From positions 1-64,000 of the forward strand of contig SVIH01000002.1 of assembly GCA_015069575.1 (NCBI GenBank): 64,000 nucleotides of DNA, read 5' to 3'. The stretch comes from Clostridiales bacterium. Lineage in GTDB: Bacteria > Bacillota > Clostridia > Christensenellales > QALW01. Shown piece after piece: positions 13,327-15,063 of the stretch. The position numbers were made by a program, and so were the translations under genes. Every line of letters begins with the position of its first letter. Position 1 is the stretch's first letter. Under the pieces are notes generated by a model, which saw nothing but the letters and a program-made list of their open reading frames with translations, was not told the origin of the DNA and searched no databases.

Positions 13327-14481
13327 ATGTCAGTATTGAATCTATTGTCGGAGCAAACTTTTATTGAGAAAATGGACAACCAGAACATTCTCCTTGCAGC
13401 GATTGCGAGTAACGGCGGCGGTGTGAAAATCACATCTTGGAGTGCCGTTCAGCAAGTTGTTCGTTTGGGTCTTGCCTCAAAAGTTTTTGCTATCGGCGAC
13501 CAGTTCATCAGTACAAAAGGCGATGCACAGTTAGTATGGGACATAATCGGTTTCGACCACGATGTTCCGGCTGACAGTCAGTTTACGCATAGTATGACAA
13601 TTCAACTCCACGATTGTTATACTTCTGCTCAATTCGATGCCCGAGAAGCGTTGTATTATGCTACGGAAGACTTACCGGCTGGTACATACAATTTCAGTAT
13701 CGTAACGCAACCTTGGTACACTGCCGATAACGGCAAGACTTTCCAATTTACTTTGGCTAACGATTTAGCAGCCGGTGGACAGATTGTACTCGATATGACC
13801 TACAATCAAGCTCTTGCTGGAAAAAGTGTTAAAGTTTACAGTGGTAGCGATTCGACAGATGTTATCGAAACTGCAACCATTAGTGAGGGTACAAGCGGTA
13901 CTGCTCTTGGAGCAACAGACGGCTCGGTGGAAAACCTCAACCATATTCAACGAGCAATTATGGGGTCTAACCGTTGGACACATTCGGCTGTCAAGCAGTG
14001 GCTCAACAGTGATAAAGCCGCTAACAGTTGGTGGATTGCTAAAAACAATTTCGACAGACCGTCAGCACAGGTTACATCGGCTGGTTTCCTAACCGATATG
14101 GACAGCGAATTTTTGGCTGTAATCGGCGAAGTAAACAAGCGTAATGCTCTTAATACTGTTACGGACGGAGGCGGTTATGAAGACAGCAAGGAGTTGATGT
14201 TCTTGCTCTCTCGTAGCGAACTGTACGGCGGTTTGGAAAATAGCATAAACGAGGGTGAGCCTTATCCTTATTATGCAAATTATTCCGATTTGTCTGCTCC
14301 CGGTACTGCGGTAGATAGCAACCGAATCAAGTACAGAAATGGCTCGGCACAGTATCAATGGACAAGGTCGTGCGACTCTGGTAACGCTAACAATGTTCGT
14401 ATTGTTCGTCCGGCAGGTAACATCTACACCAGCACTGCGAGCAACAGTAACGGAGTCGCCCCAGCTTGTAACATTATCTAA
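13327..14481 (+). CDS. DGR variable target protein (DUF6273-like C-terminal domain)
   Basis: 384 aa; the C-terminal 38 codons contain the VR that matches the TR downstream; SD AAGGAGGT. Confidence 0.93.
   Translation: MSVLNLLSEQTFIEKMDNQNILLAAIASNGGGVKITSWSAVQQVVRLGLASKVFAIGDQFISTKGDAQLVWDIIGFDHDVPADSQFTHSMTIQLHDCYTSAQFDAREALYYATEDLPAGTYNFSIVTQPWYTADNGKTFQFTLANDLAAGGQIVLDMTYNQALAGKSVKVYSGSDSTDVIETATISEGTSGTALGATDGSVENLNHIQRAIMGSNRWTHSAVKQWLNSDKAANSWWIAKNNFDRPSAQVTSAGFLTDMDSEFLAVIGEVNKRNALNTVTDGGGYEDSKELMFLLSRSELYGGLENSINEGEPYPYYANYSDLSAPGTAVDSNRIKYRNGSAQYQWTRSCDSGNANNVRIVRPAGNIYTSTASNSNGVAPACNII
14366..14469 (+). repeat. DGR variable region (VR), 104 bp
   Basis: Aligns without gaps to 14960-15063; 11 mismatches, all opposite A in the TR copy. 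Confidence 0.96.
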
Positions 14482-14491
14482 AATCCAAAAT

Positions 14492-14509
14492 CTGCTCCGA
14501 CAGGAGCAG
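14492..14509 (+). promoter_or_regulatory. DGR hairpin/cruciform downstream of VR
   Basis: Perfect 7-bp inverted repeat CTGCTCC-GACA-GGAGCAG, 22 nt after the VR end, with no T-tract. Confidence 0.8.
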
Positions 14510-14528
14510 TATTAAGACGGAGGGAATT

Positions 14529-14942
14529 ATGTCAGTTGTTAAGTCAAAGCGTGGCGAGGGTCAGTTGGTTGTCATAACCAAAGCCGAAGAACTTGCGGAG
14601 TACAGTGTTAAAATCTGTAAGAACGAGAAACACTTTCCGAAAGCATTTCGCTGGTGCTTTACAATGAAAATAGTCGATGAAGCGGTATCAATATACACTC
14701 TTATTCGAGAAGCAAATACAATATTTGTTACGACCAAAGAGGATTATAGTCTTCGCCGCCGTAAGCAACTTGAGGCATTGTCGTTGACTGATTCCCTTTT
14801 GGGTCTTATTGACCTTGCGAAAAGAGTTTACGGATTAGATTCCGATAGAGTTGAGCATTGGGCTTTACTTGTAAAGAATGTTAGTAAACCTTTGCGTAAA
14901 TGGTTGAAATCCGATGAAGAAAGATACAAGGATATAGGTTGA
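14529..14942 (+). CDS. avd: DGR accessory variability determinant (Avd)
   Basis: 137 aa, predicted helical, located between VR and TR as in canonical DGR cassettes. Confidence 0.85.
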   Translation: MSVVKSKRGEGQLVVITKAEELAEYSVKICKNEKHFPKAFRWCFTMKIVDEAVSIYTLIREANTIFVTTKEDYSLRRRKQLEALSLTDSLLGLIDLAKRVYGLDSDRVEHWALLVKNVSKPLRKWLKSDEERYKDIG

Positions 14943-14959
14943 TAGTTGTAAGCTCGTTC

Positions 14960-15063
14960 GGTCGTGCAACTCTGGTAACGCTAACAATGTTCGTAATGTT
15001 AATCCGACAGGTAACATCAACAACAACAATGCGAACAACAGTAACGGAGTCGCCCCAGATTGT
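14960..15063 (+). repeat. DGR template region (TR), 104 bp
   Basis: Non-coding, A-rich AAY repeats; matches VR with A-only substitutions; 162 nt upstream of the RT start. Confidence 0.96.

What the first reader, a model, noticed from the sequence alone, without database searches (positions are those of the whole stretch)
14366..15063. 104-bp TR/VR pair with 11 substitutions, all at TR adenines
Direct ungapped alignment of 14366-14469 (VR) with 14960-15063 (TR): 93 identities, 11 mismatches. Every mismatch is A in TR and G, C or T in VR. In the target frame TR encodes many AAY codons, and the changes are N>D, N>I, N>R, T>A, N>Y, N>T, N>S, N>T, N>S and D>A with no stop codons. The 14-bp ACGGAGTCGCCCCA near the 3' end is unchanged and is a candidate IMH-like GC-rich segment. 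This A-only pattern indicates past mutagenic retrohoming.
Basis: seen in the sequence. Interest (0 to 1): 0.92.

Follow-up and report, generated by a model that had tools for sequence, protein, structure and literature searches.

The report
Phage tail-protein diversity-generating retroelement
A prophage in a gut Clostridia genome carries a complete, apparently recently active gene-diversifying cassette that rewrites the tip of a probable tail (receptor-binding) protein, a kind of system already well known from many gut phages.

Summary
VR 14366-14469 and TR 14960-15063 align without gaps; 11/104 positions differ, all at TR adenines (chance 1.9e-6). They belong to a complete phage diversity-generating retroelement (DGR): DUF6273 target gene, VR at its 3' end, a GACA-loop hairpin 22 bp downstream, Avd, TR and a DGR-type reverse transcriptase, all between the tail genes and the endolysin/holin genes of a siphovirus-like prophage. 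Strain comparison points to recent activity. A viral contig (L008) matches the window over 9,564 bp except at 17 positions, and all 17 lie inside the 104-bp VR, 16 of them at TR adenines. The TR is identical in L003 while coding flanks have diverged by about 10%. Ten of the 11 changes are therefore mutagenic. (ii) The invariant 3' core is CGGAGTCGCCCCAGCTTG, not ACGGAGTCGCCCCA. DUF6273 targets, Avd, the GRNA hairpin and A-only changes are all published. This is an ordinary new member of a known kind.

The parts
13327..14481 (+). DGR target gene, 384 aa; C-terminal DUF6273 domain (residues 207-383) carrying the variable repeat; probable tail-tip/receptor-binding protein
   Evidence: Pfam DUF6273 E 9.8e-18; PHROG 19280 and Hoc-like PHROG 10993; 1449 homologues; BFVD fold matches to phage DUF6273 proteins
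14366..14469 (+). variable repeat (VR), 104 bp, residues 347-381 of the target
14451..14468 (+). invariant 3' segment of VR (CGGAGTCGCCCCAGCTTG), candidate IMH; differs from the TR copy only by the fixed C/A at 14465/15059
   Evidence: no variation among 7 distinct close VRs; A(TR)/C(VR) fixed, and seen in 17 of 17 DGR pairs with a comparable 3' end
14492..14509 (+). inverted repeat CTGCTCC-GACA-GGAGCAG, 22 bp after VR: 7-bp stem, GRNA-type 4-nt loop, target-site hairpin/cruciform
   Evidence: compensated stem in L010 (CTGTCCC/GGGACAG); matches the description in PMC3240598
14529..14942 (+). Avd-like accessory variability determinant, 137 aa
   Evidence: PHROG 3206 'Avd protein of DGR' E 4.7e-22; NCBIfam DivGenRetAVD E 3.3e-5, below cut-off; four-helix model pLDDT 88.5; resembles S23 family and Bordetella Avd 4dwl
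14960..15063 (+). template repeat (TR), 104 bp, non-coding, 14 AAY codons in the target frame
   Evidence: identical in L007, L008, L003 and L025
15064..15225 (+). TR-RT spacer, 98.8% identical in L003 although most coding flanks are about 90%; likely part of the template RNA (inferred)
15226..16287 (+). DGR reverse transcriptase, 353 aa; YMDD; LGSQVTQ form of the (I/V/L)GxxxSQ motif
   Evidence: RVT_1 E 8.2e-18; PHROG 1423 E 2.4e-97; best PDB match 8ub7; alignment A3

Best explanation
A complete DGR in a siphovirus-like prophage. TR RNA (with its 3' spacer) is copied by the RT together with Avd into cDNA with random bases opposite TR adenines. The cDNA replaces the VR at the 3' end of the DUF6273 target gene, using the invariant 3' segment (IMH) and the downstream GACA hairpin as the target site. 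The TR is not itself a target because its 3' segment (A at 15059 instead of C) and the missing hairpin make it IMH*-like. The result is a diversified binding surface at the C-terminus of a probable tail-tip protein, which would help the phage track changing host surfaces. Shown: anatomy, A-only bias, VR-confined divergence with constant TR, fixed IMH/IMH* difference, conserved hairpin. Inferred: cDNA chemistry, template RNA boundaries, why the TR is spared, and the receptor-binding role of the target.
For: 11/11 mismatches at TR A. L008 differs from the window at 17 of 9,564 bp, all in VR, 16 at TR A, changing 11 residues. Among 7 distinct close TR/VR pairs 108 of 114 mismatches are at A, with all three products (43 G, 38 T, 27 C). 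TR identical in L003 while VR differs at 20/104 and neighbouring coding DNA at about 10%. RT, Avd, hairpin. Gene order tail - BppU_N protein - target - Avd - TR - RT - CBM protein - endolysin - holin. DUF6273 targets with VR in their C-terminus are published for Faecalibacterium phage DGRs, and DUF6273 targets of other gut phages were modelled as C-type-lectin-like.
Against: No expression or activity data. Six of 114 mismatches in close pairs fall on TR T or G, two of them at the very last base. Avd is below the Pfam and NCBIfam curated cut-offs and its profile has no sequence match in PDB. L007 is identical to the window throughout, VR included. The PDB fold search with the target model finds only an IgA peptidase domain, not a named C-type lectin. 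L008 is an assembled metagenomic contig.
Confidence: 0.96

Rival explanations
1. The two repeats are an ordinary duplication whose copies drifted apart, with TR now a non-coding relic.
For: Two direct repeats 594 bp apart, one of them non-coding.
Against: All 11 differences at A (P 1.9e-6); TR identical between relatives whose flanks differ by about 10%; all 17 differences between L008 and the window confined to VR.
Confidence: 0.01
2. A real DGR that was active in the past but is now inactive in this host, the remaining variation being spread by recombination between phages.
For: No activity assay; L007 has the same VR as the window.
Against: All DGR genes intact and open; L008 is otherwise identical, including 1.2 kb from the tRNA-Pro into the host flank, yet its VR differs at 17 sites, 16 at TR A. 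Import by recombination would usually bring flanking differences.
Confidence: 0.1
3. The reverse transcriptase belongs to another class (group II intron, retron or antiviral DRT) and only sits near the repeats.
For: NCBIfam's best labels are group II RT and Drt3a, far below their cut-offs.
Against: No maturase or endonuclease domain found; best PDB match 8ub7 at 1.9e-24 against 4e-9 for the next, with residues 12-348 matched; relatives repeatedly sit just downstream of an A-biased TR/VR pair.
Confidence: 0.01

Closest known systems
Bordetella phage BPP-1 DGR (mtd/avd/TR/brt)
   Same: Target - Avd - TR - RT order, VR at the 3' end of a tail-related gene, A-specific changes, GRNA hairpin after VR, IMH/IMH* difference (own knowledge plus PMC3240598)
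   Different: DUF6273 target rather than Mtd; hairpin 22 bp rather than 4 bp from VR; RT motif LGSQVTQ; Avd only distantly similar
DUF6273-target DGRs of Faecalibacterium phages Lelie, Roos and Pioen (PMC11792537) and gut phages nd4/nd12 (tentaclins, PMC10743442)
   Same: DUF6273 target with DGR in gut phages; in the Faecalibacterium phages the VR is likewise in the DUF6273 C-terminus; nd12 RT 43.6% and Lelie RT 35.4% identical
   Different: Lelie, nd4 and nd12 have two targets, here one VR; no Fn3/Ig domain found here
Unannotated human fecal phage MT835664.1
   Same: Nearest RT in the INPHARED phage collection, 63.8% identity over 99%
   Different: Not annotated; its TR/VR was not examined
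Prophage in a deer-gut Clostridia MAG (L003, contig JAGAQV010000015.1)
   Same: Same cassette in the same order; RT 98% identical, TR identical; alignment runs up to the tRNA-Pro
   Different: VR differs at 20 of 104 bases; flanks about 90% identical

Membership tests
Diversity-generating retroelement | TR/VR pair with substitutions confined to TR adenines | tested here: met
   11/11 in the window; 108/114 in 7 distinct close pairs
Diversity-generating retroelement | Reverse transcriptase of the DGR clade next to TR, with (I/V/L)GxxxSQ motif | tested here: met
   PHROG 1423, best PDB 8ub7; motif is LGSQVTQ, the S of SQ replaced by T. DiGReF reports variation in the last two residues in 15 of 155 DGRs (PMC3521204). 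No tree was built.
Diversity-generating retroelement | VR inside the 3' end of a target ORF, changes mostly at codon positions 1 and 2, no stops | tested here: met
   32 of 35 TR adenines at codon positions 1 or 2; 14 AAY codons; changes without stops
Diversity-generating retroelement | Accessory protein Avd | tested here: met
   PHROG 3206 E 4.7e-22, four-helix fold; below Pfam and NCBIfam cut-offs
Diversity-generating retroelement | IMH at 3' end of VR, non-identical IMH* in TR | tested here: met
   Fixed A(TR)/C(VR) at 15059/14465 in all close pairs and recurring in distant ones; function as IMH not assayed
Diversity-generating retroelement | Hairpin/cruciform with GC-rich stem of 7-10 bp and GRNA loop 4-34 bp after VR | tested here: met
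   CTGCTCC-GACA-GGAGCAG at +22
Diversity-generating retroelement | TR constant and VR variable among close relatives | tested here: met
   L008, L003, L025
Diversity-generating retroelement | RT-dependent retrohoming in cells | not testable with these tools
   Needs a laboratory assay
DUF6273 / C-type lectin-like DGR target | DUF6273 domain containing the VR | tested here: met
   Residues 207-383, E 9.8e-18; VR residues 347-381
DUF6273 / C-type lectin-like DGR target | C-type lectin fold displaying VR residues | tested here: inconclusive
   Model pLDDT 84.9 but weak at the end of the VR; PDB fold search gave no named lectin; likeness reported for other DUF6273 targets

The most novel reading that the evidence does not exclude
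The RT clade with LGSQVTQ in place of the (I/V/L)GxxxSQ motif (T, I, M, N or V before the invariant Q in relatives) may tolerate rare miscopying at TR T/G as well: all 7 non-A mismatches in the pairs examined come from TQ enzymes (7/178 against 0/257 for other dipeptides). The comparison is confounded by shared ancestry, drift and a segment search that penalised non-A mismatches.
Probability: 0.07. Interest if true: 0.4.

Novelty: new member of a known kind. Interest (0 to 1): 0.2.

Why it matters
It adds a well-resolved natural example in which two otherwise identical prophage contigs differ only inside the DGR variable repeat, and it gives a clear comparative definition of the IMH/IMH* difference in DUF6273-type gut phage DGRs. 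Neither point changes the current view of DGRs.

Tried and rejected
Searched the window and own genome for further VRs: none. Searched the own genome for other RVT_1 genes: none. Rfam found no known RNA at the TR. Sequence search of the Avd profile against PDB: none. The PDB fold search with the target model gave only an IgA peptidase domain. A TR-shaped pattern in viral contigs found only the two contigs already known. A second, 88% identical tRNA-Pro-region copy on contig C9 does not define an attL. Among 60 related host genomes only two have a distant RT match (37% and 30% identity). Rejected: simple duplication; non-DGR RT.

Full report
Observation. The ungapped alignment of 14366-14469 with 14960-15063 has 11 mismatches in 104, all at adenines of the second copy. 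With 35 A in the TR, chance gives 1.9e-6. Similarity ends sharply on both sides. No third copy exists in the window or genome, and the genome has one RVT_1 gene.

Surroundings. The repeats lie in the late region of a siphovirus-like prophage: portal protein (19-1524), probable tape measure (6040-8604, inferred from length and position, no family hit), tail proteins (8995-12607), a BppU_N-domain protein (12620-13312), then the target gene, Avd, TR and RT, followed by a CBM5/12 protein, endolysin and holin. A tRNA-Pro at 18571-18647 follows; the alignment to the related prophage L003 ends at 18648. This fits integration at a tRNA gene, but attL was not found. The target has DUF6273 at its C-terminus (residues 207-383, E 9.8e-18), and the VR encodes residues 347-381.

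Machinery. The RT (353 aa) carries YMDD and matches the PHROG reverse transcriptase family at 2.4e-97; its best solved relative is 8ub7 (1.9e-24), which I recall to be the BPP-1 DGR RT complex (the listing here says only 'Reverse transcriptase'). The region-4 motif is LGSQVTQ; the published DGR motif is (I/V/L)GxxxSQ, with the last two residues varying in 15 of 155 DGRs (PMC3521204). Relatives with TQ, NQ, IQ, MQ, VQ or SQ all sit beside A-biased TR/VR pairs. The Avd-like protein matches the PHROG 'Avd protein of DGR' at 4.7e-22, is sub-threshold in Pfam and NCBIfam, and models as a four-helix bundle resembling the S23 family and, more weakly, Bordetella Avd.

Strain comparison. Viral contig L008 and the window match over 9,564 bp with 17 differences, and all 17 lie between 14384 and 14449 inside the VR; 16 are at TR adenines and one at a TR G. 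They change 11 residues. The 1.2 kb from the tRNA-Pro into the host flank is identical too. In L003 the TR is 100% identical and the spacer 98.8%, while the target's constant part, the CBM gene and the endolysin gene are 89-91% identical and the VR 81%. Across the seven distinct close pairs, 108 of 114 mismatches are at A, yielding G, T and C (43/38/27).

Two corrections. First, position 14465 is C in all seven VRs and A in all seven TRs, and the same A/C difference near the end of homology recurs in the 17 DGR pairs whose 3' ends could be compared; the two pairs set aside (L028, L035) stop earlier. A mutagenic site would not be uniformly C, so this is best read as the IMH/IMH* difference. Second, the invariant VR segment is CGGAGTCGCCCCAGCTTG (14451-14468); 14450 varies in L025, L010 and L011.

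Target site. At 14492-14509 there is CTGCTCC-GACA-GGAGCAG, 22 bp after VR. Guo et al. (PMC3240598) describe 7-10 bp GC-rich stems with GRNA loops 4-34 bp after VR as a conserved feature of phage DGR targets. The stem is conserved in the close relatives and compensated in L010 (CTGTCCC/GGGACAG); shuffled flanks reach the window's score in 1 of 400. No comparable hairpin follows the TR.

Comparison with the known. DUF6273 targets with VR in their C-terminus are published for Faecalibacterium phages (PMC11792537). DUF6273 targets of gut phages nd4/nd12 were modelled as C-type-lectin-like receptor-binding proteins (PMC10743442). VR loci enriched in non-synonymous variation are widespread among DGRs (PMC8144416). 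The finding is a new member of a known kind.

Limits. Activity is inferred from assembled contigs. The A-only tallies for distant relatives come from a search that favoured A mismatches, so they illustrate rather than test the bias; the window pair and the L008 comparison do not have that problem.

Noticed in passing
window 15808-15828 (RT residues 195-201) and RTs of L003-L066: DGR RT clade with LGSQVTQ instead of (I/V/L)GxxxSQ; relatives have T, N, I, M, V or S before the invariant Q, all beside A-biased TR/VR pairs.
   Followed up: partly
window 14439, compared with L008: One of the 17 VR differences (G in the window, C in L008) is at a TR G, directly 5' of a mutated A; may be rare off-adenine miscopying.
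   Followed up: partly
window 18571-18647 (-): tRNA-Pro (CGG) directly beyond the prophage lysis genes; likely integration site; an 88% identical copy of the region lies on contig C9.
   Followed up: partly
window 19942-22825: Glycyl radical enzyme (685 aa, shorter than the ~785-residue models and below all NCBIfam cut-offs) with an adjoining activase; substrate class unclear.
   Followed up: no
window 46102-46184 (+): ZMP/ZTP riboswitch (Rfam RF01750, 63.4 bits).
   Followed up: no
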